From a virus: a stretch of DNA of 24,815 bases. Under the pieces are notes generated by a model. The model was not told the origin of the DNA. It saw only the letters and a list, made by a program, of their open reading frames with translations, and ran no database searches. Positions 3,967 through 24,815 of this stretch are shown piece after piece; position 1 is the first letter of the stretch; each line of letters starts with the position of its first letter. Where the stretch lies: IMG/VR virus record IMGVR_UViG_3300017739_000101, positions 1 to 24,815 of that record; one strand, 5' to 3'. A program made the translations under genes and the position numbers.

Positions 3967-5163
3967 ATGGAAGAAAAAGAAAACGTAGTTGAAGAAACTA
4001 CACAAGAACAAACTATTGACGAAAGTAAATTTGAAAGTGCTGGAGATGATAGTGTAATTAAAATAGATTTAGATAAACCTGTAGAAGATGCCACTAGAGA
4101 GCAAAGCACAGATGAGGTATCTGTTCGCAACGAATCCGAAACTAGCGAAGAGGTACGTGAAGAAAACGTCGAAGAAAAAGTTGAAGAACCTGCCGGAGAA
4201 GAAAAGCCCGAGCAAGTTCAAGATGAAGAGCCCGTCGTTCAAGAAGTAACTGATGAAGAAGTTGCTGAAGAAGTAGAAGAAGTAACTGAGCAAGTTCAAG
4301 AAGCAGTTGCTGAAGCTGAAGCTACAGGTAAACCACTACCTGAAAATATTCAAAAGTTAGTTGACTTTATGAATGACACAGGTGGAGACATAGAAGATTA
4401 TGTTAAGTTAAACAAAGATTATTCTAACTTAGACAATGTAAATCTTCTTAGAGAATATTATAAACAAACTAAACCTCATTTAACTACAGAAGAAGTTGAC
4501 TTTTTAATGGAAGATCAATTTTCTTTTGATGAAGAAGTTGACGAGGAAAGAGATATAAAAAGAAAAAAATTAGCTTTGAAAGAGCAAGTTGCTCAGGCAA
4601 AGAACCACTTGGAAAGTGTAAAATCCAAATATTACGATAGTATAAAGCAAGGCTCTAAGCTAACAACTGAACAGCAGAAAGCTATTGACTTTTTCAATCG
4701 TTATAACAAAGAGTCGGAAGACAATAAAAAAGTAGCTGAACAACAGCAACGAACGTTTTTAAATAAAACTAATCAACTATTCAACAAAAACTTCAAAGGT
4801 TTTGAATACAATGTTGGAGATAAAAGATTTAGATACAATGTTAAAAACACAGATACTGTTAAAGATACTCAAAGCGATATTAATAACTTTATAGGAAAGT
4901 TTCTTAATGAAAGTAATGAAATGTCAGATGCTAAGGGCTATCACAAGAGTTTATTCACGGCTATGAATGCTGACGCTATAGCACAGCACTTTTATGAACA
5001 AGGTAAAGCAGATGCTTTAAAAGAAAGTATTGCTAAGTCTAAAAATGTTAGTATGAATCCTCGCCAAGAATTTGGTGGTGTTGAAAATAACAGTGGCATG
5101 AAAGTTAAAGTGTTAGGTGACAACTCTTCTGATTTTAAATTTAAAATTAAAAAGAATAGATAA
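3967..5163 (+). CDS. Head scaffolding protein
   Basis: This 398-residue protein very likely guides procapsid assembly and is then removed. It lies directly between portal and major capsid protein, the usual scaffold position. Residues 1-115 are dominated by Glu, Asp and Val and look disordered. The middle (about 150-270) is charged and helical, with TKPHLTTEEVDFLMEDQF followed by Lys/Glu-rich coiled-coil-like sequence. The C terminus is basic (FKFKIKKNR), matching the capsid-binding basic tail of known scaffolds. The pattern LLREYYKQTKPHL followed by a DEE-rich stretch is one I recognise from marine phages. Bases about 4112-4240 are visibly richer in G and C, with codons such as CCC, GTC and TCC that are rare nearby. 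A fused protease was looked for and no Ser/His motif stands out. Confidence 0.8.
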   Translation: MEEKENVVEETTQEQTIDESKFESAGDDSVIKIDLDKPVEDATREQSTDEVSVRNESETSEEVREENVEEKVEEPAGEEKPEQVQDEEPVVQEVTDEEVAEEVEEVTEQVQEAVAEAEATGKPLPENIQKLVDFMNDTGGDIEDYVKLNKDYSNLDNVNLLREYYKQTKPHLTTEEVDFLMEDQFSFDEEVDEERDIKRKKLALKEQVAQAKNHLESVKSKYYDSIKQGSKLTTEQQKAIDFFNRYNKESEDNKKVAEQQQRTFLNKTNQLFNKNFKGFEYNVGDKRFRYNVKNTDTVKDTQSDINNFIGKFLNESNEMSDAKGYHKSLFTAMNADAIAQHFYEQGKADALKESIAKSKNVSMNPRQEFGGVENNSGMKVKVLGDNSSDFKFKIKKNR

Positions 5164-9976: not shown

Positions 9977-9982
9977 TCAATG
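9974..9982 (+). other. In-frame TAG-NNN-ATG junction (ring protein / giant tail protein)
   Basis: TAG (9974-9976), TCA, then ATG at 9980, all in one frame. This spacing suits termination-reinitiation. Amber read-through here would join the 529-residue ring protein to the 3127-residue tail protein. Confidence 0.5.
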
Positions 9983-12900
9983 GCTAAAATTAAAACTACA
10001 TTTATTAAAGGTCGAATGAATAAAGACCTTGACGAGCGCTTAATGCCTAAAGGTGAATATAGAGATGCTAGAAATATAGAAGTTTCAACATCTGAGGGCT
10101 CTAATGTAGGTACAGTTCAAAATATTTTAGGAAACACTCCAGTTGACAGCCTCCTTAATGGCGGTTTTATCTGCGTAGGATCTATTGCTGACGAAGGTCA
10201 AAATAAGGCTTACTGGTTTGCCTCTTCTGAAGATAAAGATGTAATAGTTGAATATGACCCTGCTTTAGAAGTGTCTTCACTAGTATTTGTTGATATAAAC
10301 AAAAGAAACACTAAAGCGTGTTTAAAGTTTGATCGAAAAATAATAACAGGCATTAATATTATAGATAATTTTCTTTTTTTTACAGATGGCTATAACGAGC
10401 CTAAAAAAATAAATATTAAAAGAAGTAAAATTGGAACAACAGACCTTAACGCTCATACTAAACTTATAGTAAGCGAAAAACATGTATATAGTGACAATAG
10501 AGGTGATGTAAGAGAAGAAAATATAACTGTAATAAAAAAGCGGCCAACAAGACCTTTGCGCGTTAAAGTAAACAAAAGCAATACTAACAAAGAAAAGGGT
10601 ATTTTTGAAAAAATATTTCCAAGATTTTCTTATAGATATAGATATGCTGATGGCGAAGTATCTGCTTATGGCCCTTTTACTAAACCTATATTTAGTGCTA
10701 ATTTTACAGACAATCTAAATTCTTTAAACTTTTTTAACTTAAAAAACGGCTACAATACATCAATGGTTAATACTATTGAGTCTATTGATTTATTAGATAT
10801 GATAGGCATGGATGCGCCAAGAGATATTGTTTCTGTAGATATACTTTTTAAAAGAGATGATTCTAACGTAGTTTATGTTGTTGAGAATGTAGATGTAATG
10901 AAGCTCGTATCTTATGGTGAGTTTAATTTATTACTTGGTAAATACACTATAACTACAGAAAATATTTTTTCAGCTATTGAAGAAAACCAAAACCTTAGAG
11001 TTTTTGATAGTGTACCTAAAACAGCTTTAGCTCAAGAAGTTACTGGCAATAGAATAGTATATGGTAATTATACTCAAGGATTTGATGTAGGCGATGTTGA
11101 AGTTAACTCTAATTATTCTGTTAAAGATTTTACTAATGAAAGTTTTTCTCAAGGAGGTATTGAATCTATTAAAGCGCAAAGAGATTATCAAATTGGAGTT
11201 GTGTTTGGAGATTATTACGGAAGAGAAACTCAAGTGTTTACTTCAAACGAAGGGTCTGTAACTGTACCTTGGAGCGATTCAAGCAAAACGCAAGGACCTA
11301 GTTATTTAGAGCCTTTAATGTTAACTTCAAGTTTATCTACTAATTTTCCTTCTTGGGCTAGCTATTACAAGTTTTATGTTAAAGAAACTTCTGGAGAGTA
11401 CTATAATCTTTTAATGGACGCTGTATATGTTCCTAGCTTAAGTACAGATTATGAAAATGAAGAAGATCATGTTTATTTATCTTTTCCATCTTCAGAAATA
11501 AATAAAATACAAGAAGACTCTTATATAATATTAAAGAAAACCTCTTCTTCTGTAGAAAAGCCTGTTAAACAATTAAATAGATATAAAGTTATTGATATTT
11601 TTCCTGAAGCTCCAGATGCAGTAGCATTTATGTATTTATCCACAGGAGAAACATCTAATCTCAGTAATAATGATAATTTATCAAACATATCTAATGAAGA
11701 CATAGGTTTATTTACTAGTCAAACTAATAGAATAGACAATGTTACAGATATTTTAGAGATAAGCGCAACTGAGTGGATAAGCGGCGGAAACTCTCCTTTG
11801 CCAGGTATGGAAGTTTCTGATGAAAATTTTACTTCAGAGCTAGATGCTTCTGACTACTATGTTTCTTGGAAAAGAGTAAGCGCTACTGGTAAAGAAACAC
11901 ATTCAAGAAGATACAGAGTTGTAAATGTATCTCAAGGATCTACAACAAAAATAAAGCTCCAAGAAAAAATATCTATTGAAGACGCTAAGCTAGCTTATGA
12001 CAATTTAGGTACTGATGTTGACGAAACAGATGACACTACAACAAATCCTATACCAGACTACGCAAACGGCGCTACTTCAAGTGCTGATAAATTACATCCA
12101 GATTTAGTTTTTTCTATTAAAAGAAAAGTAAAAAAAGATGGTGAAGATTTTTCTGGCAAGTTTTTTGTTAAAGTCTTAGCTGATGAAATTTTAAAAGAAA
12201 ACTTAATTAACTTTAGTTCAAAAAGCACTTCAGAGTTTATATCTTCTTCAAACGATACTTTTTGGTGGGGCGATGTAGCTAATGCTGACGGTAATGAAGA
12301 CTTAGGAATAAATACTATTTACGGTAATACTCCAAATACTCAGCCTGGATCAGCTGACGATCCAACAAATACTGTTACTGAGTGGGATTTACTTTTAGCA
12401 AATCATGGTAAAGCTATGTTTATAGATAACATGAGCATGGTAAGTTCTAATTTGTCTAGCTCAAACTACGCTAAACATAGTGGACAAGGCGTTAAAGCTA
12501 ATGAAGTTATATATTCTAAAAACGAATGGGACTATGAAAATGAAACTTATTGGAGTTCATCTAATGAGTATTCTATTGAAACGATGTCTGCTGTTATAGA
12601 TTCTAGTATTGAGCAAGAAGACTGGATTAATAACATAGTAAATTCTATGCATGGCATATTACAGATAAATTCTTCTTATACTGAAGGCGCTAATGCTTGG
12701 AAAAAAGATATATATAGCCAAGAGTTAGACTCTGTTTACGGTGAAGATGAAGATGCTTTTTTTATGCATTTTTCATTTTTTGCGCCAGGTAAAGATCTTC
12801 ACGATGGATCAGGCTTTGGTGATTCAGACGCTCCGTTAGACGAAGTAGAAATAGATGGAGAAAATAGTATAGCTAGCTTACTCAAAGGTATTTGGGGCGG

Positions 12901-15900
12901 TGGTGCTTTTCAATACGATGAAGATAAATTTGTTGAATTTGAAGGCAACTATTTAGACGATGATGCATTAGCAGAAGCACCAGGTCCTAACATAGGATCT
13001 GGTTATAACGTAGATTTTAAAGAGCTTCACGAAAGACAATGGGAGCCAACGTTTTCTCCTAATAGTAACTCGTTTAACTCTGACACAGAAATAGACGAAG
13101 ATTTAAAAAACTTTATACAAAATATAAAAATTGGTAAAAAGTTTAAGTTTGAAAATGACAACAATAATGAAATATACACAATACTTGATGTATCTGTAAA
13201 ACACATATATAATCATACGCCTTGGAGATCAAGATATATAAATCACTCTGCCAATGGTATATCTAGAGCTGGGGACAGCGTTGAAGAAGCAGCTAGATTA
13301 TGGGCTAAAGCAAAGGAGATAGGCACAGATCAAGTAGTTAGCGCAGAGACTAATGACGTTAGTCCTGCTCAAAACTTAGTAAATAAAATCGAAGCTTTTG
13401 GTAAGGCTAGTAATAGACGAACTTGTTATATAGTTAAACTAGATAAAAATCCTGCTTTATCTGAAAACAACCTTATAGATGGTACTGCTGACGGTATAGA
13501 TTTAGATACATCAACAAAAATACAATTTATAGATACTGAAGCTCAAGCACAGTCTGGTTTAGTAAAAAATATTTCTGCAATATTTGAAACAGAGCCTAAA
13601 GACTCGTTAGATTTAAATATATTTTACGAGGCTAGTCAAGCTATACCTACTTATTTAAACTTTTTTAATGCACCTGGTTTCGCTCCTCAAGGCTGTAGAG
13701 TTGAGTTTTTAAACTTACCACAAGCCACAAAAGGTCAACATATAGTCACTGAAAATATTATATTAGCAAATTGGGAACAAACAGAAGATGGAGATTTATT
13801 TTTTACTGTAATAAACGAAAATGCGCTAGAAGATTACTCATTTCAACCTTCAATATTTACTGGAAGTAGTGAAGAAGATGCTGAAGAAGTTGATTTTAAT
13901 CATACTATTATTAGTATAAAACAATATATAGATAGTATTGATGCAGGTATAGAAAATAATCTTGTTTTTAACAGTTTGAACAGTAGTGGTGTTAGCATAC
14001 AATATTCAGAAGCTATAGTTAGATTTTATAGAGAAGATGGTAGTTATACTTCTTGTACAATTTCTACTAATAACGATTTAATAAATTCAGGCATAGAAGA
14101 TCATAACAATAGATATGCTTTTGTTGTAAACAAAAATGTTAATCCTAATTTAAGCGTTGGGCTTAATTGGTTTAATTGTTTTAGCTTTGGTAATGGCGTT
14201 GAGTCAAACAGAATTAGAGATGATTTTAATGCTCCATTTATATCTAATGGTGCTAGAGCATCTACTACATTAGACGAGTCTTATCAAGATGAAGAACAAA
14301 GAAAATATGGTCTTATATATTCTGGAGTATATAACGCTCCAAGCGGTGTAAATAATTTAAACCAGTTCATTGCTGCAGAAAAAATAACTAAAGATTTAAA
14401 TCCTACATACGGAAGTATACAAAAACTATTTTCAAGAAGATCAGACTTAATTGCTTTTTGTGAAGATAGAGTTGTTAAAATACTAGCAAATAAAGACGCT
14501 TTATTTAACGCTGATGGTAATGTTAATTTAGTTGCTACAGAAAATGTTTTGGGTCAAGCTTCGCCTTTTGTTGGAGAATATGGAATATCACAAAATCCTG
14601 AGTCTTTTGCTAAAGAGTCTTATAGGGCTTACTTTACAGACAAAAATAGAGGCACTGTACTTAGACTCTCTATGGACGGTCTAACACCTATATCTGAAGC
14701 TGGCATGCACGATTATTTTAGAGATGAACTTCCTAAATATGGTACTTTGCTTGGAACGTATGATGATTACAAGAAACAATATAATTTGTCTTTTGGATTA
14801 GCAAGATACAATAATATTCTATTTAACTCTTATATATCTGAAGGCGAAACTTTAAATCAAAGTATATCTACTTCTCAAATTATATTAAATGGTGATTTAA
14901 ACGCTTCTGAAGAAGTTCAATTAGTTGATCCTCAGTTTTTGTATGAAAATAACGCTATAATTTCTAACGAATTTATGCAAGAACAGGTTACTATTGTTAA
15001 TTGGCCAGAAATTTTAGCTGGATCTATAGGCGCTTACTATAACGCAACAGTGACTGTACCGGCAGCTTTTCAATATGATTTAGTTTCTCAAAACTATGGA
15101 ATAGACTATTATCTTGACGGTGATGGCAATAACATAGGTCAGGCTACTACTTATGTAACAACTACTACTACTGTTGAAGTCACACCTGGAGTTTTTCCTA
15201 AGCACGGCGGTGCTAGCGATGATGATTCAAGTAGTCCGCACGGCGGATATATTCATAGAAGTATAGGTGACACAACTGGTGGTGGTTACACGCAAGATCC
15301 TTTTGCCGCTGACAACTATGGCTCTGGAAACAGTCAGTGCGCGTATTTTAATGGTGTTAAATATGGAAGATATGGAGGAGGCTCTTTTGTTCAATATATA
15401 GATCTATCAACTTATGATATTCTTGACACAGCAAACAACCCAGACAGTGACAAAGGAATACTTGTTATGAACGATACTTCTACAGAGATGAAGCGTAGTT
15501 TTGTATTTCCTTTAGGAAAATATAATGAGTCTAATCAACTAGAGACTAATGCACAAACCCAACACGCTTTTGGCTCTGAAGATCAATATTTTTCCCCTGC
15601 TCAAGATTCACTTTCTTTTGGTGGAACTATGAATCCTACTCATGTTATGAACGCAGAAGTCATAGTAGTTAAAGTTAGATATAGAGTAGTAAGAAAATGG
15701 CAATATGGTGGTGGTGATGTTGGAAAAGTTCCTATGAAAATTACTTTAATGGACGGATCTACTGATTTGTCATTTGGTGGAGTAGTAGTTTCTAATATAG
15801 AAAATACTGTGGCAGGGTCAAGCGGTGCTTTAATTGCAGGAAATACTTATATGGATCCAGACTCATATCAAAACACAATAACTAATAACGCTGCAACTAG

Positions 15901-18900
15901 TGATAATCCTTTTGTCGGTGTCAGTACTACTCTTTCTGATGGTACTAATAATGTTCATGGATCTTGGCAAATTCCACCTGCTACTTATTCTTACGAAAGC
16001 GTTGGATATACAGCTGTTGAAGAAGGAGTTTCTTCTTTAGCAGATTTAAATAACCAATTTATAGCCTTTCATAATCATTCAAGCTCAAGCTGTTCTATTG
16101 AGTTTGATACAAATCCTTACGGTTATACTCCAGCTAATAACTTGTATAACTCTACTAACAATAATAGTACGTTTTGGCCTACTATAAATGATACTTATGG
16201 TCTTCACGCTCCTTTTTATAGCCAACTTAGAACTGCTATAGTTCAATTTAGAGTTTTTGATAAAAATGATCCTTTTACTTCTAAAAGAATAATAAATAAT
16301 TTAAACGTTAACCTTTCATTTGGAGTAACAAAAGTCGATAACGCTTTTGTAGAATCTGTAGCGCTATGGAGGCAGTTTCCTTTAGAAGAAATTGGTACAC
16401 CATATAGTAGCCAAGAAGTAACAACTGATGTACCTACTCCTGCTGTTCCTGTTTATGATTTTCTTGACGTGCCAACTACAGAAACTTATTCTGGCGCAGA
16501 CGCTCTTGCTTTATATAATGCAGGTTTAGTTGCAGATCAAGCATCGCTTTTACCAGTAAATATGGGTGATCCTTGGGAAGGAACTGTTATAACAGTAAGC
16601 AACGAACAGTACACTCCGCAAGAAGTTGTTGGTAACGAGCCAGTACCAGCTGAAACAATACCTGCTTTTGCAGAAGTAATAAATATATCTACACCTGGAT
16701 TTACTTTTACTCATTTAGACGTGCCGCGCATTAACCCTTCTCCACAGTGGAACTTTTTTGCTAATTCTGATTTAGGCGATGATTTAGTTGGAGTAAGCCC
16801 TCAAGGCGAATGGGTTGAAGTTACAATAACAGATGCTAATGGTAACGATCAAACTGTTAAATATAGACAACAAACTGAAGCTGGTAGTGGTAATCTTTCG
16901 TATAATACTTACGTAGGAGATGCTATTGATAGTTTTGATGGTGAAGCGTTAGGTAGTCATTACCAAGGATCAAATACAGCGCCAACACAAGCTACTTTTG
17001 ATGGCCCTGATGGCGGTATATATTTTGGCATAAATCAACCAGAGCCTGGTGACGTGCGTATTAAAATAGAAAATGAAGATGGCTCTGATTTGTTTGTAGC
17101 TGGTAATTATTACGTTGTTGATTTGTTTTACAATGAAGAAACTCACCCTGATAGTCAAATTACAGCTCCATCATTAACAGGCGATGGCGCTAAACTTAAC
17201 GGTAGACGAGTTAGACTTGATGGCGTCGTAGACGCTGGTATTGCAGCTCAATGTCATAAAGAAACTCAAAGTTTACAAATCGAAGACAGTGCTTATCCAG
17301 CTGGTCATTTTGGTCAAATATATTATCTTGCAAATAACGACGCTGACTTAATACCGCTACCTGTAACTGTAACTGAATATGGTTCGCCACGTAAAGCACT
17401 TAGAGGTATATTTAAAGCAACTGAAAACTCAAATCAATATGTTGCTAACGGAAATAATTTTAGCCGTCTTCAAATAAGAGGTTACGGAGCTGGTGATGGT
17501 ATTGAAAACTATATACACTTTACTGGTGTACAGATTATAGATATAACACAAACAGATGCTCCAGGTGGTTTTAGTGAGTATTGGCATACAAATACTTTTC
17601 AACAACCAGAACATGCTTTTGAAGATTTATCTGCGTACTATGCTTATGGTGGTTGGAATTTTAACATACCTTCAACTCAAACAAGTCCTGATTTATTTCA
17701 AAACTATTTAGAGTATTCTTTTGAAAATAATGAGTTTAGCAGCTTATCTAGCGATGAAGTTGTTTATATACTAGAAACTAACGTACTACCAAACGGTGAT
17801 ACAGGTGTGTTTAATGGTATAGTTCAAATTAATGTTACTACACCTGTTCAAGAAGATGGGCTTGTTAAAGGAATACGCATCCAATATTCAGCTGAAGATG
17901 TTGGTAAAATGAAAGTAGCTTTTACCAATAGTGGTGAGTTTGAAATAATAGAGCCACTTGCTATAGATAGTGGTGCAACTGTAGATACTCTTGCTACTAG
18001 TGAAGGAAATAATAACTTTAATCCAGCTACTATTAACTCTCCCGGTGGAGGTGTAAAAGTAGTTATGGTAAACCCTGGTTATGAGTTTAATGCACAATGT
18101 AAAATTGAATCTATAAAGCTTTATATTGAAAGCACTGTTATTAGCGGTGGTAATATTGGCAGCTGGCTGTTTAGTAGTGTTCAACCAGTTGGTGATTTTG
18201 CGTCTGAAACGCTTAGTCCTTACAACGCTCAAGTAAATCCAGCTACTATTAACCCGCAGCCACCTGAATTTACAGGTCCTCAAATTCCTATAACATCTGA
18301 AAGCTATATTTACTTTGAAAACGAAGGAGAGTCTAACGATCAATACATAAAATTAAATAATGCTCCTGCTGGTACTCAAATTTATCAGTTTTTAGAAAAT
18401 CCACTGCAACTAGGAAATACATATGGTTTTAGTATGTTGTTTGCCGCTCTTCAATGCCCTATTGAAATATATTATTTTACACCTAACAGTGTTGATGGTA
18501 ATGCTACAGGCTTTAAGCATATATTTTCACCTGTATTTACAACAGAAGATTCTATAACACCTTTTGCCGTAGCAACATTATTACTAAATTCTATAGAAAA
18601 TTCTAGCAACCCATTGAATCTAGAAGGACAAATTTTAACTAAAAGTGTTACTATAGAAAATTACACTGGTAGTAGCGCAAATATTTTTAATTCAGAGGTT
18701 GATCTTACTGGCTGTCTTGTTATTAGAGTTTTACAGCCTTACGATAATTCTATTCCAGGATCTTTAAATAACGGACTTTTAACAGCTACTATAGATAATA
18801 TAACATTTTATCAAATAGACACTACAAACTTAATGCCTGAAACTGTTTCTTATGAAGAATCTGTAAAAGGTTGGATTAGTTTTAAAGATTTTAAAGACAA

Positions 18901-19363
18901 AAATGACCGCGGTATAGAATCTGGTTTAAGTTTAAGTAAAAAATACTATACTTTTTTAGGAGGTGCAATGTGGCAGCATTATACTAATGATACATACTCT
19001 TTGTTTTATGGCAGTGCAAGGTCGGCTAGAATAACAACTATAATTAACGATGCTCCTGATATAGTTAAACAGTTTAAAGCTTTAGAGTATGAAGGCTCTG
19101 ATGCTCTTTTCCAGGGAAGCGAAAATTATATACAAGCCCAGCAAGACGGTTTTAATACTAAAAATAGAGACGGATGGTATTGTAACAATATAAAAACGAA
19201 TATGGCAGAAGGAGATGTTAAATACTTTTTTAAAAAAGAAGATAAGTGGTTTAATTATATTAGAGGCATAAGCAGTATCAATAATTCTATTAAAGAAGGT
19301 CATTTAAATGTTCAAGGTTTAGGTATGGTATCTAGTTTAGTATTAATAAGCGAAGAAGAATAA
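9980..19363 (+). CDS. Giant tail protein (stabilisation/nozzle-like ends, large beta-rich insertion)
   Basis: This 3127-residue protein (very roughly 340 kDa) is probably the main tail component. The N terminus (FIKGRMNKDLDERL, GEYRDARNIEVSTSEGS, VGTVQNILGN) matches a family often annotated as tail or DNA-stabilisation proteins, similar in layout to P22 gp10. Residues ~211-233 (FPRFSYRYRYADGEVSAYG), ~1399 (NCFSFGNGVESNRIRDDFN) and ~1470-1600 (LFSRRSDLIAFCEDRVVKIL, YRAYFTDKNRG) continue the core, and residues ~2960-3127 (GWISFKDF, YYTFLGGAMWQHY, NDAPDIVKQFKALEYEGS) close it. The segment between ~1610 and ~2950 looks inserted: Gly/Asn/Thr-rich, almost all beta, with several jelly-roll-like modules. 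The start is set by the preceding TAG and the conserved N-terminal motif. A tail nozzle or muzzle carrying adhesion domains is the best reading; no enzymatic motif was identified. Confidence 0.75.
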   Translation: MAKIKTTFIKGRMNKDLDERLMPKGEYRDARNIEVSTSEGSNVGTVQNILGNTPVDSLLNGGFICVGSIADEGQNKAYWFASSEDKDVIVEYDPALEVSSLVFVDINKRNTKACLKFDRKIITGINIIDNFLFFTDGYNEPKKINIKRSKIGTTDLNAHTKLIVSEKHVYSDNRGDVREENITVIKKRPTRPLRVKVNKSNTNKEKGIFEKIFPRFSYRYRYADGEVSAYGPFTKPIFSANFTDNLNSLNFFNLKNGYNTSMVNTIESIDLLDMIGMDAPRDIVSVDILFKRDDSNVVYVVENVDVMKLVSYGEFNLLLGKYTITTENIFSAIEENQNLRVFDSVPKTALAQEVTGNRIVYGNYTQGFDVGDVEVNSNYSVKDFTNESFSQGGIESIKAQRDYQIGVVFGDYYGRETQVFTSNEGSVTVPWSDSSKTQGPSYLEPLMLTSSLSTNFPSWASYYKFYVKETSGEYYNLLMDAVYVPSLSTDYENEEDHVYLSFPSSEINKIQEDSYIILKKTSSSVEKPVKQLNRYKVIDIFPEAPDAVAFMYLSTGETSNLSNNDNLSNISNEDIGLFTSQTNRIDNVTDILEISATEWISGGNSPLPGMEVSDENFTSELDASDYYVSWKRVSATGKETHSRRYRVVNVSQGSTTKIKLQEKISIEDAKLAYDNLGTDVDETDDTTTNPIPDYANGATSSADKLHPDLVFSIKRKVKKDGEDFSGKFFVKVLADEILKENLINFSSKSTSEFISSSNDTFWWGDVANADGNEDLGINTIYGNTPNTQPGSADDPTNTVTEWDLLLANHGKAMFIDNMSMVSSNLSSSNYAKHSGQGVKANEVIYSKNEWDYENETYWSSSNEYSIETMSAVIDSSIEQEDWINNIVNSMHGILQINSSYTEGANAWKKDIYSQELDSVYGEDEDAFFMHFSFFAPGKDLHDGSGFGDSDAPLDEVEIDGENSIASLLKGIWGGGAFQYDEDKFVEFEGNYLDDDALAEAPGPNIGSGYNVDFKELHERQWEPTFSPNSNSFNSDTEIDEDLKNFIQNIKIGKKFKFENDNNNEIYTILDVSVKHIYNHTPWRSRYINHSANGISRAGDSVEEAARLWAKAKEIGTDQVVSAETNDVSPAQNLVNKIEAFGKASNRRTCYIVKLDKNPALSENNLIDGTADGIDLDTSTKIQFIDTEAQAQSGLVKNISAIFETEPKDSLDLNIFYEASQAIPTYLNFFNAPGFAPQGCRVEFLNLPQATKGQHIVTENIILANWEQTEDGDLFFTVINENALEDYSFQPSIFTGSSEEDAEEVDFNHTIISIKQYIDSIDAGIENNLVFNSLNSSGVSIQYSEAIVRFYREDGSYTSCTISTNNDLINSGIEDHNNRYAFVVNKNVNPNLSVGLNWFNCFSFGNGVESNRIRDDFNAPFISNGARASTTLDESYQDEEQRKYGLIYSGVYNAPSGVNNLNQFIAAEKITKDLNPTYGSIQKLFSRRSDLIAFCEDRVVKILANKDALFNADGNVNLVATENVLGQASPFVGEYGISQNPESFAKESYRAYFTDKNRGTVLRLSMDGLTPISEAGMHDYFRDELPKYGTLLGTYDDYKKQYNLSFGLARYNNILFNSYISEGETLNQSISTSQIILNGDLNASEEVQLVDPQFLYENNAIISNEFMQEQVTIVNWPEILAGSIGAYYNATVTVPAAFQYDLVSQNYGIDYYLDGDGNNIGQATTYVTTTTTVEVTPGVFPKHGGASDDDSSSPHGGYIHRSIGDTTGGGYTQDPFAADNYGSGNSQCAYFNGVKYGRYGGGSFVQYIDLSTYDILDTANNPDSDKGILVMNDTSTEMKRSFVFPLGKYNESNQLETNAQTQHAFGSEDQYFSPAQDSLSFGGTMNPTHVMNAEVIVVKVRYRVVRKWQYGGGDVGKVPMKITLMDGSTDLSFGGVVVSNIENTVAGSSGALIAGNTYMDPDSYQNTITNNAATSDNPFVGVSTTLSDGTNNVHGSWQIPPATYSYESVGYTAVEEGVSSLADLNNQFIAFHNHSSSSCSIEFDTNPYGYTPANNLYNSTNNNSTFWPTINDTYGLHAPFYSQLRTAIVQFRVFDKNDPFTSKRIINNLNVNLSFGVTKVDNAFVESVALWRQFPLEEIGTPYSSQEVTTDVPTPAVPVYDFLDVPTTETYSGADALALYNAGLVADQASLLPVNMGDPWEGTVITVSNEQYTPQEVVGNEPVPAETIPAFAEVINISTPGFTFTHLDVPRINPSPQWNFFANSDLGDDLVGVSPQGEWVEVTITDANGNDQTVKYRQQTEAGSGNLSYNTYVGDAIDSFDGEALGSHYQGSNTAPTQATFDGPDGGIYFGINQPEPGDVRIKIENEDGSDLFVAGNYYVVDLFYNEETHPDSQITAPSLTGDGAKLNGRRVRLDGVVDAGIAAQCHKETQSLQIEDSAYPAGHFGQIYYLANNDADLIPLPVTVTEYGSPRKALRGIFKATENSNQYVANGNNFSRLQIRGYGAGDGIENYIHFTGVQIIDITQTDAPGGFSEYWHTNTFQQPEHAFEDLSAYYAYGGWNFNIPSTQTSPDLFQNYLEYSFENNEFSSLSSDEVVYILETNVLPNGDTGVFNGIVQINVTTPVQEDGLVKGIRIQYSAEDVGKMKVAFTNSGEFEIIEPLAIDSGATVDTLATSEGNNNFNPATINSPGGGVKVVMVNPGYEFNAQCKIESIKLYIESTVISGGNIGSWLFSSVQPVGDFASETLSPYNAQVNPATINPQPPEFTGPQIPITSESYIYFENEGESNDQYIKLNNAPAGTQIYQFLENPLQLGNTYGFSMLFAALQCPIEIYYFTPNSVDGNATGFKHIFSPVFTTEDSITPFAVATLLLNSIENSSNPLNLEGQILTKSVTIENYTGSSANIFNSEVDLTGCLVIRVLQPYDNSIPGSLNNGLLTATIDNITFYQIDTTNLMPETVSYEESVKGWISFKDFKDKNDRGIESGLSLSKKYYTFLGGAMWQHYTNDTYSLFYGSARSARITTIINDAPDIVKQFKALEYEGSDALFQGSENYIQAQQDGFNTKNRDGWYCNNIKTNMAEGDVKYFFKKEDKWFNYIRGISSINNSIKEGHLNVQGLGMVSSLVLISEEE
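14820..18830 (+). other. Central beta-rich insertion of the giant tail protein
   Basis: Residues ~1615-2950. Repeated jelly-roll-like strands of the form L-x-G-N-x-Y occur near residues 1951 (LIAGNTYM), 2373 (FVAGNYYVV) and 2809 (LQLGNTYGF), and a terminal strand TIDNITFYQI near 2943 resembles the closing strand of CBM4/9-type domains. Other parts include a Thr run (TTTTTVEV) and His/Gly/Ser-rich loops. Probable surface-exposed binding modules; boundaries are approximate. Confidence 0.4.
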
Positions 19364-20584: not shown

Positions 20585-21043
20585 ATGCCAAAATATTTAA
20601 TGACAGTAGATAATAGTAATGGTGACTTTTCACTTTCTGTACGCGATAAAATATGGATTTATCCTAAAAGTACCTTGACTAATGTAATAGTTGCTCCATT
20701 TAGTGAAATAGGTGATTATTCTTATTCTAATAGTAGTTCTGGCGCTTATGAATTAGGATTAGTTAGAAGAATAGGTCCTTTAGGTGCTGTAGTAGATTCT
20801 GAAACAAATGAAATACTAGAACCTGCTTTAGCACTTGGAGAAATAGAAGTAGAAACTGAAGAAGTTTTTGGAGAAGATCTGTTAAAAGATCTTAAACTTG
20901 GTTTTGCTGGCTTTTATAAAGATCCTAGAGCCAATACTTCTGGTGTTAAAGGTTACTATGCAGAAGTTAATTTTAGAAATAACGCTAACTATAAGTCAGA
21001 GTTGTTTTCTGTAGGCGCTGAAGTAGTAGAAAGCAGTAAATAA
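20585..21043 (+). CDS. Small conserved virion protein, function unknown
   Basis: I do not recognise a function for this 152-residue, acidic protein. It appears folded and mainly beta: MTVDNSNGDFSLSVRDKIW, LTNVIVAPFSEIGDYSY, then an acidic linker (IEVETEEVFGEDLLKDL), then FAGFYKDPRANTSGVKGYY and a terminal strand YKSELFSVGAEVV. There is no Cys pattern, signal peptide or membrane segment. It lies 8 bases after the beta-rich structural gene, probably on the same transcript, so a partner role (chaperone or small tail/fibre subunit) is plausible but unsupported by any motif. Confidence 0.6.
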   Translation: MPKYLMTVDNSNGDFSLSVRDKIWIYPKSTLTNVIVAPFSEIGDYSYSNSSSGAYELGLVRRIGPLGAVVDSETNEILEPALALGEIEVETEEVFGEDLLKDLKLGFAGFYKDPRANTSGVKGYYAEVNFRNNANYKSELFSVGAEVVESSK

Positions 21044-21084: not shown

Positions 21085-22305
21085 ATGGCAATAGTAGGTA
21101 AAATATCAGCTTTTAAAAAAAGAAAAGAAGAAAGTCCGTTTAAAATTATTCCAGCTTTAATAACTGCTGGGATTGGTTATCTTTCTGCTAAAAAAGCTAG
21201 AAGTCAAGCAAATAGATTTCGTAGACAAGATCAAGAAAAGTTTAACGAAATGCAAGAGGCTTACAATGCTATAGAATATACAAATCCTTACGAAGGCCTA
21301 GAGAATCCTTACAGCGGCTTAACAAATCAGTTTGAAGGATTAGAAAATAGATTTAGTGGTTTAACAAATCAATATGCTGGACTAACAAGTCAAGTCGCTG
21401 GTTTAGAAAACCAATACGAAGGTTTAGAAAACCAATTTACAGGTTTGCAAAATAGATTTGAAAGCGCTGAAAATGTATTTGAAGATTTACGTGTAGATAC
21501 TAGAGCTGCAGACTTTGCAAGAGAACAAGCGCAGCAATCACAGGCAAATATATTAAGTCAGTTAAGCGGCGCCGCAGGTACTAGCGGTATTGCAGGTTTA
21601 GCTCAAGCTGTAGCTGGCGCAGGTACACAGCAAGCAAGACAAGCGTCGTTAGATATTGCTCAGCAAGAAAGACAAAATCAAATGGCTCAACGCGGTGAAG
21701 CTGCAAGACTACAACAAGCACGTCTTGGTGAAGCATCAAGATTAGATCAACTTAGAGCTCAAGAAGATGCTAGATTGCAATCAATGACTGCTCAAGAGCG
21801 TGGTAGAATAGCACAGTTGCAAGCACAAGATAGAAGCAGACTACAGCAATTGCAAGCAGGTGAAGCTGGTAGATTACAACAGTTAGAAGCTACTCAATCG
21901 TCTAGACTTGATCAGCTTACAGCGCAACAACAAGGTCAGCTAGATCAGTTAATGGCTAGCGGACAATTTCAAGTAGACATGTTAGATCGTAAAGGACAAA
22001 TGTACGTAGAGCAAATGAACGCTAGACGTATTGAAGCCATGTATGGTTTAGCAGCTGGTAATTTAGCATCTTCTACAATAGCAGCAAATCAAGCTGGTAC
22101 TGCAGCATCGGGCGCTCTTGGTAATTTAGCTGGTACGTTTATTGGTGGAGTAGCTAGTGGTGATATTAATTTAGGTGGACTAACACCAAGTACTTCTAAC
22201 TTAGAGTTTGCTCCTGGCGGTGGTCTGCCAGCTTATACTACTCCAGATCCTTTTACAAGCCCTATTAGCGGACAACAGGGTTATAACTTCTACGGTAACG
22301 ACTAA
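21085..22305 (+). CDS. Probable internal virion/ejection protein with heptad and hendecad arrays
   Basis: This 406-residue protein is built from repeats. Residues 21-35 (IIPALITAGIGYLSA) form a short hydrophobic segment next to a basic patch (KKARSQANRFRR). Residues 67-136 hold ten 7-residue units of pattern N-x-[YF]-x-G-L-[ET]. Residues ~140-200 are Gln/Ala-rich with a Gly-Ala stretch (LSGAAGTSGIAGLAQAVAG). Residues 208-295 hold eight perfectly phased 11-residue units of pattern R-L-x-Q-L-x-A, a right-handed coiled-coil type. A second Gly/Ala-rich weakly hydrophobic stretch (about 325-358) precedes a disordered tail. Proteins of this layout occur in marine phages next to large internal proteins, and context supports a capsid-packaged protein that inserts in or crosses the host envelope. 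This role is inferred; an alternative is a structural coiled-coil fibre. It ends TAA-ATT-ATG. Confidence 0.65.
   Translation: MAIVGKISAFKKRKEESPFKIIPALITAGIGYLSAKKARSQANRFRRQDQEKFNEMQEAYNAIEYTNPYEGLENPYSGLTNQFEGLENRFSGLTNQYAGLTSQVAGLENQYEGLENQFTGLQNRFESAENVFEDLRVDTRAADFAREQAQQSQANILSQLSGAAGTSGIAGLAQAVAGAGTQQARQASLDIAQQERQNQMAQRGEAARLQQARLGEASRLDQLRAQEDARLQSMTAQERGRIAQLQAQDRSRLQQLQAGEAGRLQQLEATQSSRLDQLTAQQQGQLDQLMASGQFQVDMLDRKGQMYVEQMNARRIEAMYGLAAGNLASSTIAANQAGTAASGALGNLAGTFIGGVASGDINLGGLTPSTSNLEFAPGGGLPAYTTPDPFTSPISGQQGYNFYGND
21283..21492 (+). repeat. Ten-unit heptad repeat array (coding)
   Basis: Ten tandem 21-base units encode residues 67-136 with consensus N-[PQR]-[YF]-x-G-L-[ET]; the last two units are degenerate (NRFESAE, NVFEDLR). 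Codons differ between units (GGC/GGA/GGT, CTA/TTA/TTG), so the array has diverged at the DNA level while the protein pattern is kept. Confidence 0.85.
21706..21969 (+). repeat. Eight-unit hendecad repeat array (coding)
   Basis: Residues 208-295, with Arg (or Gln in the last unit) at 208, 219, 230, 241, 252, 263, 274 and 285, exactly 11 apart, each followed by Leu/Ile and then a Gln-Leu pair. No insertion breaks the phase. Hendecads favour right-handed coiled coils; Gln/Ala richness suggests extensive inter-helix packing. Confidence 0.85.
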
Positions 22306-22308
22306 ATT

Positions 22309-24141
22309 ATGGCAAAGAAAAAAAATAATCCAAATAATCTAATGAGCTTTGACTTTTTACCTAACATGAATCAAAATGTTGGCGGAGGTTTAAATGCTCA
22401 ACTAGCTAGATTAGGTCAAGTGCAGCGCATGCAACCTTTAGTTGGTATTGCTCAAACACAAGCTTTTATTACGCCTATTACTAAAATGATGCAAGATGCC
22501 CAAGCTAATATAGTTCAGGGCATGATACAGTATAACGAAGCTAATCCTGACTTAGATGACTCATTATTGTTTGATGGCACTGAAACAATACTAAATACTC
22601 AGCTTCAAGAAAATAACGTTAAATTTAAAGAGTTAAATAGAAAGCTTGGCTTTATGAGCCCTACCAGCAAAAACTACGCTGAAACAGTAAAAGAAATAAA
22701 TAACATAAATAAATCTAATTTAAACTTAAGAGATCAAAATAAAAAGTTGTTAGATATTAGAAATATAATAAAAGACAAAGATCTTCAAGAAATATCTCAA
22801 GGTAATTCTTCTGCTCACTTAAAGATGTATGAAGATATACAGCAAGGTAGAAAAGATAATTTTTCAACAGATGCAGAAGGTAATTTAATTTGGAATAACC
22901 CAAATAAACAAGGTGAAATTAAATCAATACCAATTAGCGGTGTATCTGCAGACGGTCCAGAAATGACTCAAGGCGCGGCTAACGATCAAGCATATAATAC
23001 TTTTGCTACTATAAGACAAATAAGAGCTAATGAGTTGCAGCCTGGAGATGCTTATCAAAGAATTAATACTATGGCTAGAGAAATAGGTGATAGCGGTTTA
23101 AAGTCTTTGATTTTTGATAATATGAACGCTGCAAATAGTCCTATAGGTAATACAGATAAATGGTGGAAAACTTATGCTGCTAGCGTAGGTGTTGAGCCTG
23201 AAAGTGAAGCCGGAGGTAAACTATTAGAGCAAATTAAGCTTAAAGGCATGCTTCACTCTGTAGGTGGTGTTAAAGTTAAAGATCATTTTTTAAATTGGCT
23301 TAAAGAAGAAGCTGTTAAAGCACCTAAGTTTGGTAAAGGTTTACCACCAAAGGGAAATGGAAATGAATCTACAGATCCAGCAGCTACACCTTGGAAAGAG
23401 TGGGGAGCTAGTTATAGCAGTCAATACATAAAAACAGGTGGGGCAGATGAAGTAGCTCCTATATCTATTACCTGGCAGGATGCATCTGAAAGAAGAACAA
23501 GATTAGATAATTTAGATATAGTTAAAGGAGCGCATGCTGTATATAGATATCAGCCTAAAGACGAAAACGATAAAAATCCTTGGAAATCTAGTATTGACTT
23601 TGTGATAGAAGGTAAAACAAAATCAGAGTTTACTATGTTTGAAGTGGCTGACATAGAAGGACTAATAAAAATGGGTGAAGGAAGAGCTGATTTTGAAGGA
23701 GATATTGCGGGTAGAAAAAGTGATCAAGACAAGATTAATGCAGGCCTTGCTCCTTCTACAGCTTTAAAAGAAAATGATGATGACGCTGCCTCTGGAGAGT
23801 TAAATAGAATATTTGGCATGCGAATGGGTGAAAGCGAATATTATTTCCATCCTTTTACTAGAGATATTTTTGGAGGAGGAGGCTTCAAACCTGGCTCATC
23901 AGATAATGTTTTTACTAATGATGTAATGTTAGTAAAGAAAGATGGTATAAACAAGTTAACTGGTGTGCAAGGCTATCCTGAAGCTGTTGTAGATGAAGCT
24001 ACAGGACAGCCTTACAGATTTAAAACGGGAACTGATTACAAAGAAGAACAGCTGACAATATTAAATGATTTAATGAAGCAGTTAGACTATGTTAAAAATA
24101 TTACCGGAGACACTGATAAATCGTACGAAGATAAAGAATAG
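22309..24141 (+). CDS. Probable internal virion protein
   Basis: This 610-residue protein is mostly helical and soluble-looking. The N terminus (LMSFDFLPNMNQNVGGGLN) leads into Gln/Met-rich helices (RMQPLVGIAQTQAFITPITK). Residues ~100-150 are a Lys/Asn/Leu-rich coiled-coil-like stretch (EINNINKSNLNLRDQNKKLL). The middle has DKWWKTYAASVGVEPES and HFLNWLKEEAVK, then a Pro/Gly linker (GKGLPPKGNGNES), and the C-terminal part is mixed alpha/beta with a Gly loop (RDIFGGGGFKPGSSD). No lysozyme, transglycosylase or peptidase motif could be seen. It sits between two other putative ejection proteins, at 3-base junctions on both sides in the same frame, which suggests stoichiometric, coupled synthesis. 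It ends at TAG-AAT-ATG. Function is inferred from context. Confidence 0.6.
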   Translation: MAKKKNNPNNLMSFDFLPNMNQNVGGGLNAQLARLGQVQRMQPLVGIAQTQAFITPITKMMQDAQANIVQGMIQYNEANPDLDDSLLFDGTETILNTQLQENNVKFKELNRKLGFMSPTSKNYAETVKEINNINKSNLNLRDQNKKLLDIRNIIKDKDLQEISQGNSSAHLKMYEDIQQGRKDNFSTDAEGNLIWNNPNKQGEIKSIPISGVSADGPEMTQGAANDQAYNTFATIRQIRANELQPGDAYQRINTMAREIGDSGLKSLIFDNMNAANSPIGNTDKWWKTYAASVGVEPESEAGGKLLEQIKLKGMLHSVGGVKVKDHFLNWLKEEAVKAPKFGKGLPPKGNGNESTDPAATPWKEWGASYSSQYIKTGGADEVAPISITWQDASERRTRLDNLDIVKGAHAVYRYQPKDENDKNPWKSSIDFVIEGKTKSEFTMFEVADIEGLIKMGEGRADFEGDIAGRKSDQDKINAGLAPSTALKENDDDAASGELNRIFGMRMGESEYYFHPFTRDIFGGGGFKPGSSDNVFTNDVMLVKKDGINKLTGVQGYPEAVVDEATGQPYRFKTGTDYKEEQLTILNDLMKQLDYVKNITGDTDKSYEDKE

Positions 24142-24147
24142 AATATG
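24139..24147 (+). other. In-frame TAG-NNN-ATG junction (two internal proteins)
   Basis: TAG (24139-24141), AAT, then ATG at 24145 in the same frame, with no other stop between. It is the second of only two TAG stops in the window; the other (9974) has the same arrangement. Confidence 0.5.
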
Positions 24148-24815
24148 AATACAATATACATAGTAGACGGTAAAAGATACTCAGTAGGTCAGTCTAAGCT
24201 AGAACAATTTTTAAACGATTTTCCTAACGCTGTAAGAGAAACAGAAGTGGGAAAGCAAAACGGCTTCCCGCAAGACCCGACGGCGAGCCAAGAAGATATG
24301 GGGTCGCAATTGGACGATGGTTCATCGGAATCAGTAAGTTGGTTTGATCAAACATGGTTTGGTAGAGGTTTTAGAGCTGCAAGCACTACAGGTGAAGCTA
24401 CAGATCTTATGGCTGAAGATTTTTCTAATGTTGATATAAAAAAAGTTAGAGAATTTATAGCGGCTAAAGAAGATGAAGCTAAAAATTACGTTCCTTCTGA
24501 GCGTATGCAAAAATTCCAAAAACAATACATAAAAGAAGGCAAGACTTGGTCTGCTTTTTTTAGAGGTGTAAGAAGACAACCTGGTTTATTACCAGAGCTT
24601 TTTGTCCAATCATTAGGTACTCAAATAGGTACGGCTTTTGATGCACCTGAATCATTAGCCTTTGCAGGTACTGGCGCAGCTGCCGGAGCCGCTCTTGGAG
24701 CAGTACCAGGTGCTATTGCTGGTGCTATGGGTGGTTTAGCAACATCTATGGAAGCCGCTTTAACTTTTGGTGAGCTTATAGAAAAAGAGTTAAAATTAGA
24801 AAACAAAGAGTTTAC
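24145..24815 (+). CDS. Probable large internal virion protein (3' partial)
   Basis: The frame opens at 24145 and stays open to the right edge, giving 223 complete codons; a stop was not reached, so the gene continues beyond the window. Residues 1-30 (MNTIYIVDGKRYSVG, LEQFLNDFPNA) match an N-terminal motif I know from very large capsid-internal proteins of marine and crAss-like phages. Residues 34-64 are a polar linker encoded by GC-rich, atypical codons. Residues 65-165 are helical and charged (VSWFDQTWFGRGFRAAS, KVREFIAAKEDEAKNY). Residues ~170-206 are a long Gly/Ala-rich hydrophobic stretch (GTGAAAGAALGAVPGAIAG) with a glycine-zipper look, consistent with membrane insertion during ejection. 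Any enzymatic domain would lie downstream, out of sight. A clear ATG follows the previous gene by three bases. Confidence 0.65.
   Translation, partial: MNTIYIVDGKRYSVGQSKLEQFLNDFPNAVRETEVGKQNGFPQDPTASQEDMGSQLDDGSSESVSWFDQTWFGRGFRAASTTGEATDLMAEDFSNVDIKKVREFIAAKEDEAKNYVPSERMQKFQKQYIKEGKTWSAFFRGVRRQPGLLPELFVQSLGTQIGTAFDAPESLAFAGTGAAAGAALGAVPGAIAGAMGGLATSMEAALTFGELIEKELKLENKEF
24247..24271 (+). other. Stable hairpin in a GC-rich coding patch
   Basis: GTGGGAA and GC at 24247-24256 pair with GC and TTCCCGC at 24263-24271, with a one-base A bulge and loop AAAACG. It sits about 100 bases into the last gene, inside a patch that is about 55% G+C over 24241-24300, against a clearly AT-rich background. 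Confidence 0.45.

What the first reader, a model, noticed from the sequence alone, without database searches (positions are those of the whole stretch)
21283..21969. Heptad array followed by a perfectly phased hendecad array in one ejection-type protein
Seen: ten N-x-[YF]-x-G-L-[ET] units (residues 67-136), then eight 11-residue units (208-295) with no phase break, joined by a Gly/Ala-rich segment and flanked by hydrophobic segments at ~21-35 and ~325-358. Known: related marine phage proteins carry only a few N-P-[YF] units, as far as I recall. Inference: an extendable two-part filament or channel wall whose repeat number may set length across the envelope.
Basis: partly seen in the sequence, partly recalled or inferred. 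Interest (0 to 1): 0.55.

Follow-up and report, generated by a model that had tools for sequence, protein, structure and literature searches.

The report
Number-locked repeat hairpin in phage ejection protein
A marine phage protein, probably one that helps the phage push its DNA into the host cell, contains two runs of repeats, of 7 and 11 residues, that pair off one-to-one like a zipper, so that in related viruses the two runs grow and shrink together.

Summary
The 406-residue protein (window 21085-22305) has ten 7-residue units and an unbroken 11-residue array. Of 202 distinct relatives, 175 could be measured and 65 carry extra repeats. In 58 of those 65, each extra 7-mer before the hairpin is matched by exactly one 11-mer after it, and an 11-residue variant by an 18-mer. 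None of the 175 expands one arm alone. Unit by unit, a large residue at heptad position 6 faces a small one at hendecad position 10, and the reverse (110 of 120 units; z -7.7 in antiparallel register); sequences are related, so events are fewer. The heptads are probably a tape of about 2.4 A per residue laid along a long helix; two low-confidence models disagree on this. Gene order and profile homology to a Cellulophaga phage protein annotated from virion proteomics point to a small ejection protein in the position of T7 gp14. Homology to T7 gp14 itself is not shown. That repeat number sets channel length is inference.

The parts
21085..22305 (+). 406-aa repeat protein, putative small ejection (internal virion) protein
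   Evidence: ORF; relatives in IMG/VR; profile homology to Elemovirus/Cellulophaga virion proteins
21133..21189 (+). weak N-terminal hydrophobic stretch (residues 17-35)
   Evidence: Kyte-Doolittle 1.17; not present in L018
21283..21471 (+). nine heptads, residues 67-129 (N-arm), each paired with one hendecad
   Evidence: size coupling
21472..21492 (+). core unit NVFEDLR (residues 130-136), end of the N-arm; N130, E133 and D134 invariant in A1
   Evidence: alignment A1; register
21493..21696 (+). conserved core: helix, Gly/Ser loop (model loop residues 163-169) and helix with QQERQNQM (residues 137-204)
   Evidence: alignment A1; models
21697..21993 (+). nine hendecads, residues 205-303 (C-arm), within one long predicted helix (residues 170-354)
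   Evidence: (pLDDT block means 66-91 over 201-300)
21994..22146 (+). distal part of the long predicted helix (residues 304-354), beginning at Gly304, invariant in A1
9980..19363 (+). 3127-aa muzzle-like tail protein, context
   Evidence: crAss_MUZ_C PF25729 31.6 bits over cut-off 27; phrog_14478
20585..21043 (+). 152-aa gene in the place that gp13 has in T7; identity unknown
   Evidence: position; weak phrog_18548, unknown function, E 7.2e-4; no Pfam hit
22309..24141 (+). 610-aa gene in the place that gp15 has in T7; identity unknown
   Evidence: position; no family hit
24145..24813 (+). start of a giant gene cut by the window end, in the place that gp16 has in T7
   Evidence: 3open ORF; phrog_32588, unknown function, shared with L003's 2247-aa giant protein

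Best explanation
The protein is the small ejection (internal virion) protein of a marine short-tailed phage related to Flavobacterium/Cellulophaga podoviruses. Its chain folds as a long hairpin. After an N-terminal helix, an N-x-[YF]-x-G-L tape (heptads) runs toward the tip, a short helix and a Gly/Ser turn form the tip, and one very long helix (hendecads, three turns each) runs back. Each heptad packs on one hendecad, so an added 7-mer needs an added 11-mer. Because 11 helical residues rise 16.5 A, the tape rises about 2.4 A per residue and is not a straight alpha helix. SHOWN by sequence: the 7:11 copy-number lock, the 11:18 variant, the antiparallel order and the size-swap coupling. SUPPORTED: membership of the ejection-gene block and homology to a protein annotated from virion proteomics. 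INFERRED: the tape conformation, and that several copies of the hairpin form a tube wall across the envelope after ejection, each pair lengthening it by about 1.65 nm, so that natural variants are graded length rulers.
For: Lock: N=2+7k+11j with C=13+11k+18j in 58 of 65 expanded proteins, r=0.9995 over 175; shuffling C among the 65 gives 9.8 on average and 20 at most in 20,000; Fitch changes 40 for N, 40 for C, 40 for the pair; in 31 tree-disjoint pairs both arms change in the same direction in 31. At 70% core clustering 13 of 17 expanded representatives fit, r 0.997, and none of 175 expands one arm alone. Proteins first seen in later scans, with anchors trained on the earlier ones: 13 of 16 fit. 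Contacts: heptad 6 against hendecad 10 opposite in size in 110 of 120 units (null 73.8, sd 4.7), heptad 6 and hendecad 5 alike in 103 of 120 (null 80.4, sd 3.9), none of 20,000 shuffles as high; strongest of 77 column pairs z -7.7 at antiparallel shift 0, |z| at most 3.0 at shifts of 1 or 2. Tape: heptad position 5 is G/D/N in about 95% of 128 units; the L018 model leaves 52-85 non-helical but for 64-67, between helices 5-51 and 86-110. Role: similar gene order in Elemovirus and Cellulophaga phages; hhalign Prob 96.3, E 1.7e-9 over 195 columns against reversed controls of 2.4 and 2.0; phi18:3 gp120 annotated from MS/MS; best BFVD match of the L018 model named 'Internal virion protein', E 7.9e-10, 37% identity; five relatives fused to a protein like L062's downstream gene.
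Against: 7 of 65 expanded proteins break the exact rule, one of them (L108, +18/+18) clearly; L015 has 26 extra residues in the N-arm without change in C. The window model makes the heptads helical from 77 on, at block pLDDT 38-53; the L018 model is 83 falling to 53 over its non-helical stretch, so prediction does not settle the tape. The coupling counts related sequences, not events, and was significant in two hand-made groups; three others have little or no variation. Within the window-like group the pair 1 swap is absent in L003 (Ala faces Arg) and in L006-L008, where Met faces Leu at pair 1 and Leu faces Met at pair 5. PHROG 13764 does not reach the window or any of 19 relatives; T7_gp14 reaches only Elemovirus and phi38:1, below cut-off, and 2 of 14 control genomes ring too. 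No convincing solved structure. Hydrophobic flanks are weak and not conserved. No data bear on tube formation or length.
Confidence: 0.6

Rival explanations
1. The lock and contacts are real, but the protein acts inside the virion: hairpins line or fill the portal or tail barrel, and the repeat number matches the tail or head rather than the host envelope.
For: In crAss001 a cargo protein segment lines the tail barrel (PMC10172136, passages), and the window has a muzzle-type tail protein. No evidence here favours the envelope over the tail.
Against: Position next to genes in the gp15 and gp16 places suggests release into the host; the small proteins of T7 and DEV are described as ejected (PMC8954989, PMC10925440, passages).
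Confidence: 0.2
2. Both arrays are alpha helices forming an antiparallel coiled coil in which the hendecad helix is strongly tilted or wound round the heptad helix, so 7 and 11 residues cover the same axial distance.
For: Heptad positions 3 and 6 have the 3-4 spacing of a coiled coil; the window model is helical through most heptads.
Against: That stretch has block pLDDT 38-53; G/D/N at position 5 in about 95% and Asn at position 1 in 90% of units disfavour helix; the L018 model, with the deeper alignment, is mostly non-helical there. A tilt of about 50 degrees would be needed (arithmetic).
Confidence: 0.17
3. It is a tail fibre or needle with trimeric coiled coil; the Peptidase_S74-like tails of some relatives are fibre chaperones.
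For: Peptidase_S74 hits just below cut-off in L015 and L022; 24 of 202 proteins match an S74-like pattern.
Against: 178 of 202, the window among them, do not match that pattern. The same domain is noted (pfam13884) in an annotated ejection protein of Pseudoalteromonas phage H6/1. The syntenic proteins are annotated as virion structural proteins, not fibres.
Confidence: 0.06
4. The arrays are low-complexity sequence produced by replication slippage, without structural meaning.
For: Tandem repeats often arise by slippage (general knowledge).
Against: dN/dS 0.03-0.13 in the arrays in four pairs, matched indels in two separate segments, side-chain coupling.
Confidence: 0.01

Closest known systems
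Elemovirus gp20 / Cellulophaga phi18:3 gp120, phi38:1 gp099 (phrog_13764, virion structural protein)
   Same: Same place in the gene block, same hairpin core by profile alignment over 195 columns, hydrophobic N-terminus; phi18:3 gp120 annotated from virion MS/MS.
   Different: 200-228 aa in seven of the eight compared (302 in the environmental one); no heptad or hendecad array seen by eye in the translations printed.
T7 gp14 and DEV gp73 (small outer-membrane ejection proteins)
   Same: Smallest of three neighbouring genes of rising size (PMC8954989, PMC10925440 passages); about 200 aa in the shortest relatives.
   Different: No significant sequence homology to T7 gp14. The review says gp14 varies less than 30% in size (181-240 aa); here, fusions and contig-end fragments left out, lengths run from about 198 to 609 aa, extra C-terminal domains included. 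DEV gp73 was not compared.
phiX174 H protein (DNA pilot tube)
   Same: Hendecads and heptads in one DNA-delivery protein, in a decameric helical tube 170 A long (PMC7354561, passages).
   Different: There the two repeat types follow one another in one coiled-coil domain; here they face each other on two arms, in locked number, and the heptads are probably not helical. No homology was tested.
Phage tape measure proteins with variable numbers of 11-residue repeats
   Same: Variable number of 11-aa units in a phage length protein (PMC3271669, abstract).
   Different: The abstract reports one repeat type; no partner array or locking is mentioned there.
crAss001 cargo proteins gp45/gp46
   Same: Encoded next to a muzzle protein (gp44), with giant proteins beyond (PMC10172136, passages).
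   Different: Larger (90.8 and 60.2 kDa); no sequence comparison made.

Membership tests
phrog_13764 virion structural protein family (Elemovirus, Cellulophaga) | match to the PHROG profile | tested here: not met
   phrog_13764 matches in the 5 named phage records and in 0 of 20 records of this family (window and 19 contigs), E<=1; 2 of 14 control genomes ring
phrog_13764 virion structural protein family (Elemovirus, Cellulophaga) | profile-profile similarity along the chain | tested here: met
   25 family members against 8: Prob 96.3, E 1.7e-9, 195 columns; reversed controls Prob 2.4 and 2.0. 60 of 92 short members: 96.4, 152 columns, reversed 0.9 and 1.6
phrog_13764 virion structural protein family (Elemovirus, Cellulophaga) | gene order: large tail-type protein - small gene(s) - this - medium gene - giant gene | tested here: met
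   window against L040, L041, L042, L044, L047; the number of small genes differs, and phi13:2 and phi18:3 have extra genes, one of them between medium and giant
phrog_13764 virion structural protein family (Elemovirus, Cellulophaga) | presence in virions | not testable with these tools
   only the record note of phi18:3 gp120 says MS/MS; nothing for the window's virus
T7 gp14 (PF24072) | Pfam match above cut-off | tested here: not met
   0 of 25 records over cut-off; only Elemovirus 17.4 and phi38:1 13.5 bits (cut-off 27), with 2 of 14 control genomes ringing
T7 gp14 (PF24072) | profile-profile similarity to nine T7-type gp14 proteins | tested here: inconclusive
   Cellulophaga/Elemo set Prob 11.6, co-linear over 146 columns, reversed 1.2 and 0.5; the window family itself 3.4 (controls 0.1, 0.2; 23 columns) and 0.4 (controls 0.7, 2.6) in two sets
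T7 gp14 (PF24072) | outer-membrane pore after ejection | not testable with these tools
   needs purified protein
canonical heptad coiled coil | continuous alpha helix through the heptads | tested here: inconclusive
   helix from residue 77 at block pLDDT 38-53 in the window; mostly non-helical, block pLDDT 83 to 53, in L018; G/D/N at position 5 in about 95% of 128 units
beta-roll (LbR_Ice_bind PF21300) | Pfam match and beta structure | tested here: not met
   hits in 4 of 10 proteins, all below cut-off; no strands in either model
phiX174 H-type pilot tube | hendecads and heptads in series in one helix | tested here: not met
   arrays are on opposite arms, antiparallel

The most novel reading that the evidence does not exclude
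A new structural principle: two tandem arrays of different period (7 and 11, with a matched 11:18 variant) in one chain zipper one-to-one as an extended tape on a straight helix, with a knob-and-hole code at each pair. Phages use it as a modular rod that can be lengthened in steps of about 1.65 nm, only by adding matched units to both arms, to fit their DNA-delivery channel to the host envelope.
Probability: 0.4. Interest if true: 0.8.

Novelty: new variant of a known kind. Interest (0 to 1): 0.63.

Why it matters
I know of no other case (recall) in which two unlike repeat arrays in one chain are locked in number this exactly. The lock gives structural information from sequence alone: direction, register, rise per residue and a packing code, for a protein with no solved relative found. 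If the hairpins form the wall of the delivery channel, nature supplies a graded series of lengths (0 to 12 extra units, about 20 nm of helix between the extremes), which makes the old question of how short-tailed phages fit their channel to the envelope directly testable. It also suggests a modular part for designing rods of set length.

Tried and rejected
Two-part serial filament: rejected by the lock and the antiparallel coupling. Parallel pairing and register shifts: rejected; parallel shift 0 gives up to |z| 4.3 but with opposite signs, other antiparallel shifts at most 3.0. A first coupling scan with side-chain volumes was indecisive among shifts; the big/small coding used afterwards was chosen after seeing the unit lists, so its z values are optimistic, though shifts and parallel order serve as controls. 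The position of the 11-mer and the 18-mer is imposed by the parse; that it is right was read by eye. The groups were set by hand, not from the tree. Coupling to the length of the next gene: rho 0.49 over 156 proteins, which I take for a lineage effect, and -0.05 among the 58 expanded. Beta-roll: weak Pfam hits only. T7 gp14 homology: not established. tblastn of the window protein, L018 and L031 in 50,697 phage records gave nothing; L022 matched three records by its S74-like tail only. Structure searches: two PDB matches at E 5.2 and 5.9 for the window model, none for L018. PDB sequence searches: best E 0.42 and 0.67. Crude motif anchors as a check: a wrong constant made the last line show 0 fits of 110; corrected: 103 of 117 proteins (of 202) fit, 38 of the 52 expanded; some of the 14 misfits are misplaced motifs, others the known exceptions. 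Host: 4 MAG contigs, not followed. Papers: PMC8954989, PMC10925440, PMC10172136, PMC7354561, PMC11440229, PMC13288928 passages only (the last said nothing on phi38:1 gp099 in what I saw); PMC3271669 abstract and outline. Searches for a prior description showed none in the titles and abstract starts listed (12 of 115, 8 of 52, 8 of 15 and 6 of 9 papers). S74 and Hint functions, the helix rise of 1.5 A and the helix-breaking nature of G/D/N are recalled.

Full report
OBSERVATION. The gene at 21085-22305 (+) encodes 406 residues. Identity at lag 7 in residues 67-136 is 0.52 (z 13.0) and at lag 11 in residues 208-295 is 0.48 (z 9.2), with further multiples also high. Six of ten heptads fit the stated motif exactly; four are variants. 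In the register shared with relatives, nine heptads (67-129) face nine hendecads (205-303), and NVFEDLR (130-136) is a core element. Both arrays are under purifying selection: dN/dS 0.045 and 0.035 between window and L002, 0.03-0.13 over four pairs, and lower than at both ends of the protein in all four.

CONTEXT. The window is a 24,815-base virus record without end repeats. It encodes a large terminase (phrog_6681), a portal (phrog_6547), virion proteins, a 3127-aa protein ending in the crAss muzzle domain (31.6 bits, cut-off 27), genes of 402 and 152 aa, the repeat protein, a 610-aa gene and the start of a giant gene. The terminase is nearest to an environmental phage (66.7%), then to Flavobacterium phages of the genus Elemovirus (49.5%); all 87 records matched but that one are Flavobacterium, Cellulophaga, Tenacibaculum or Maribacter phages. 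Elemovirus and Cellulophaga phages have a similar order: a large virion protein, small gene(s), a protein of about 200-230 aa (302 in the environmental phage), one of about 450-640 aa, and a giant one; some have extra genes between, also on the other strand. T7 has gp14-gp15-gp16 of rising size after gp13.

RELATIVES. With the window they give 202 distinct proteins. In the 32 aligned in A1 the invariant positions include N130, E133, D134, G165, S167 and most of QQE(RQ)NQM. tblastn of the window, L018 or L031 protein in 50,697 phage records finds nothing. Profile comparison links the family to the Elemovirus/Cellulophaga virion protein over 195 columns (Prob 96.3; reversed controls 2.4 and 2.0), repeated with 60 of 92 short members (96.4; 0.9 and 1.6). 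The PHROG profile of that protein does not reach this family directly. Of those proteins, phi18:3 gp120 is annotated 'based on experimental MS/MS proteomics analysis'; I did not see the proteomics itself.

THE LOCK. Three HMM anchors (before the heptads, the core, after the hendecads) give arm lengths N and C. In the first 99 loci, 70 could be measured and 66 obeyed one rule (loci, not distinct proteins). With anchors rebuilt from 68 sequences, 175 of 202 distinct proteins could be measured; 27 lacked an anchor and were dropped. 110 carry no extra unit. Of 65 that do, 58 satisfy N=2+7k+11j and C=13+11k+18j exactly, with k up to 12 and j 0 or 1. The correlation over 175 is 0.9995, the slope among the expanded 1.58. 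Shuffling C among the 65 gives 9.8 fits on average, 20 at most in 20,000. Parsimony on a tree of the core needs 40 changes for N, 40 for C and 40 for the pair, so every change can involve both (nearly every N value goes with one C value). In 31 tree-disjoint pairs that differ, both arms change in the same direction in all 31; by my reading of the printed list 24 are exact unit multiples. Among proteins first seen in the later scans, which the rule and anchors had not used, 13 of 16 expanded ones fit. With one representative per 70% core cluster 13 of 17 fit, per 90% cluster 45 of 52. None of 175 is expanded in one arm only. Exceptions are (7,20) three times, (11,28), (18,38), (29,60) and (20,31); all but the last keep roughly the same ratio. 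L015, unmeasured in the second pass, has 26 extra residues in the N-arm alone. Cruder motif anchors give the same rule in 103 of 117 proteins, 38 of the 52 expanded.

DIRECTION AND CONTACTS. In the sequences printed the 11-residue variant is second from the N-terminal end of its arm and its 18-residue partner second from the C-terminal end of the other (read by eye), as an antiparallel hairpin requires. Pairing heptads and hendecads outward from the core, 33 proteins have k of 2 or more; 23 of them vary at heptad 6 or hendecad 5 (120 units). A large hydrophobic residue at heptad 6 goes with a small or polar one at hendecad 10, and the reverse, in 110 of 120 (shuffle mean 73.8, sd 4.7); heptad 6 and hendecad 5 agree in 103 of 120 (80.4, sd 3.9); no shuffle of 20,000 reached either, nor did shuffling between proteins at the same index for the second. 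Over all 77 column pairs the strongest signals are at antiparallel shift 0: (6,10) -7.7, (6,5) 5.8, (2,10) 5.5, (3,10) -4.3, (2,5) -3.9. Shifted antiparallel registers stay within 3.0; parallel pairing at shift 0 gives opposite signs, up to 4.3. By hand-made groups the (6,10) swap is significant in the L010-like one (14 proteins, 60 of 68 units, null 35.7) and the window-like one (8 proteins, 60 of 67, null 53.0); three groups have little or no variation. These counts are of related sequences, not events. In the window the only Ala at heptad 6 (NRFESAE, 123-129) faces the only Leu at hendecad 10 (EAARLQQARLG, 205-215); L002, L004 and L005 share this, and L051 and L052 show it too, but in L003 the Ala faces Arg, and in L006-L008 Met faces Leu there.

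SHAPE. If the hendecads form a straight helix (block pLDDT 83-91 over 221-280), 11 residues rise 16.5 A, and seven heptad residues cover that at about 2.4 A each: too extended for an alpha helix, too short for a strand. Heptad position 5 is Gly, Asp or Asn in about 95% of 128 units (from proteins without the 11-mer) and position 1 Asn in 90%, which fits repeated turns. Models disagree: the window (32 sequences, mean pLDDT 59.6, pTM 0.23) has helix 77-162 at block pLDDT 38-63 and helix 170-354; L018 (68 sequences, 71.2, 0.36) has helices 5-51, 86-110 and 116-257, with 52-85 non-helical but for 64-67, at block pLDDT 83, 69, 53, 55. I weigh the second more, because its alignment is deeper and it agrees with the geometry, but it is not decisive. 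No solved structure matched convincingly; the best viral predicted structure, 37% identical and so probably a family member, is named 'Internal virion protein'.

ROLE. Gene position, core homology to a virion protein, and five relatives fused to a protein 46-66% identical to L062's downstream gene make an ejection protein likely. In T7 the small protein forms an outer-membrane pore; in DEV gp73 forms pores in bilayers and gp72 the tunnel (PMC8954989, PMC10925440, passages). Sequence homology to T7 gp14 is not shown, so I say 'in the position of gp14', not 'a gp14'. phiX174 H shows that hendecads and heptads can build a DNA tube (PMC7354561, passages), and some tape measure proteins vary by 11-residue units (PMC3271669, abstract). 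A length ruler is therefore plausible here, but it is inference; the array length does not follow that of the next gene among expanded members, and an intravirion role is not excluded.

VERDICT. The number-locked, register-locked antiparallel pairing of a 7-residue and an 11-residue array did not appear in the listings of the searches I made.

Noticed in passing
L015, L017, L019, L022, L025, L026, L029, L039 and others, C-terminus: 24 of 202 relatives match an S74-like pattern; Pfam Peptidase_S74 just below cut-off in L015 and L022. The same domain is noted in an annotated ejection protein of Pseudoalteromonas phage H6/1.
   Followed up: partly
L010, L012, L014, L020, C-terminus: Four of 202 relatives match a Hint-like pattern; Pfam Hint_2 below cut-off in L012, L014 and L020.
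   Followed up: partly
L057, L059, L060, L064, L071: Proteins of 814-847 aa in which the repeat protein, an S74-like segment and a relative of L062's downstream 463-aa protein are one chain.
   Followed up: partly
L015, N-arm: A 26-residue insertion interrupts the heptad array without change in the hendecad arm.
   Followed up: no
window 9980-19363: The muzzle-like protein is 3127 aa, about twice the Elemovirus protein in that place (1493 aa).
   Followed up: no
window 4155-4436: Short imperfect DNA repeats in the 398-aa gene after the portal.
   Followed up: no
L282-L285: Relatives on contigs binned in MAGs of Flavobacteriaceae (2), Maricaulis and Bacteroidetes: possible hosts, or binned phage contigs.
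   Followed up: no
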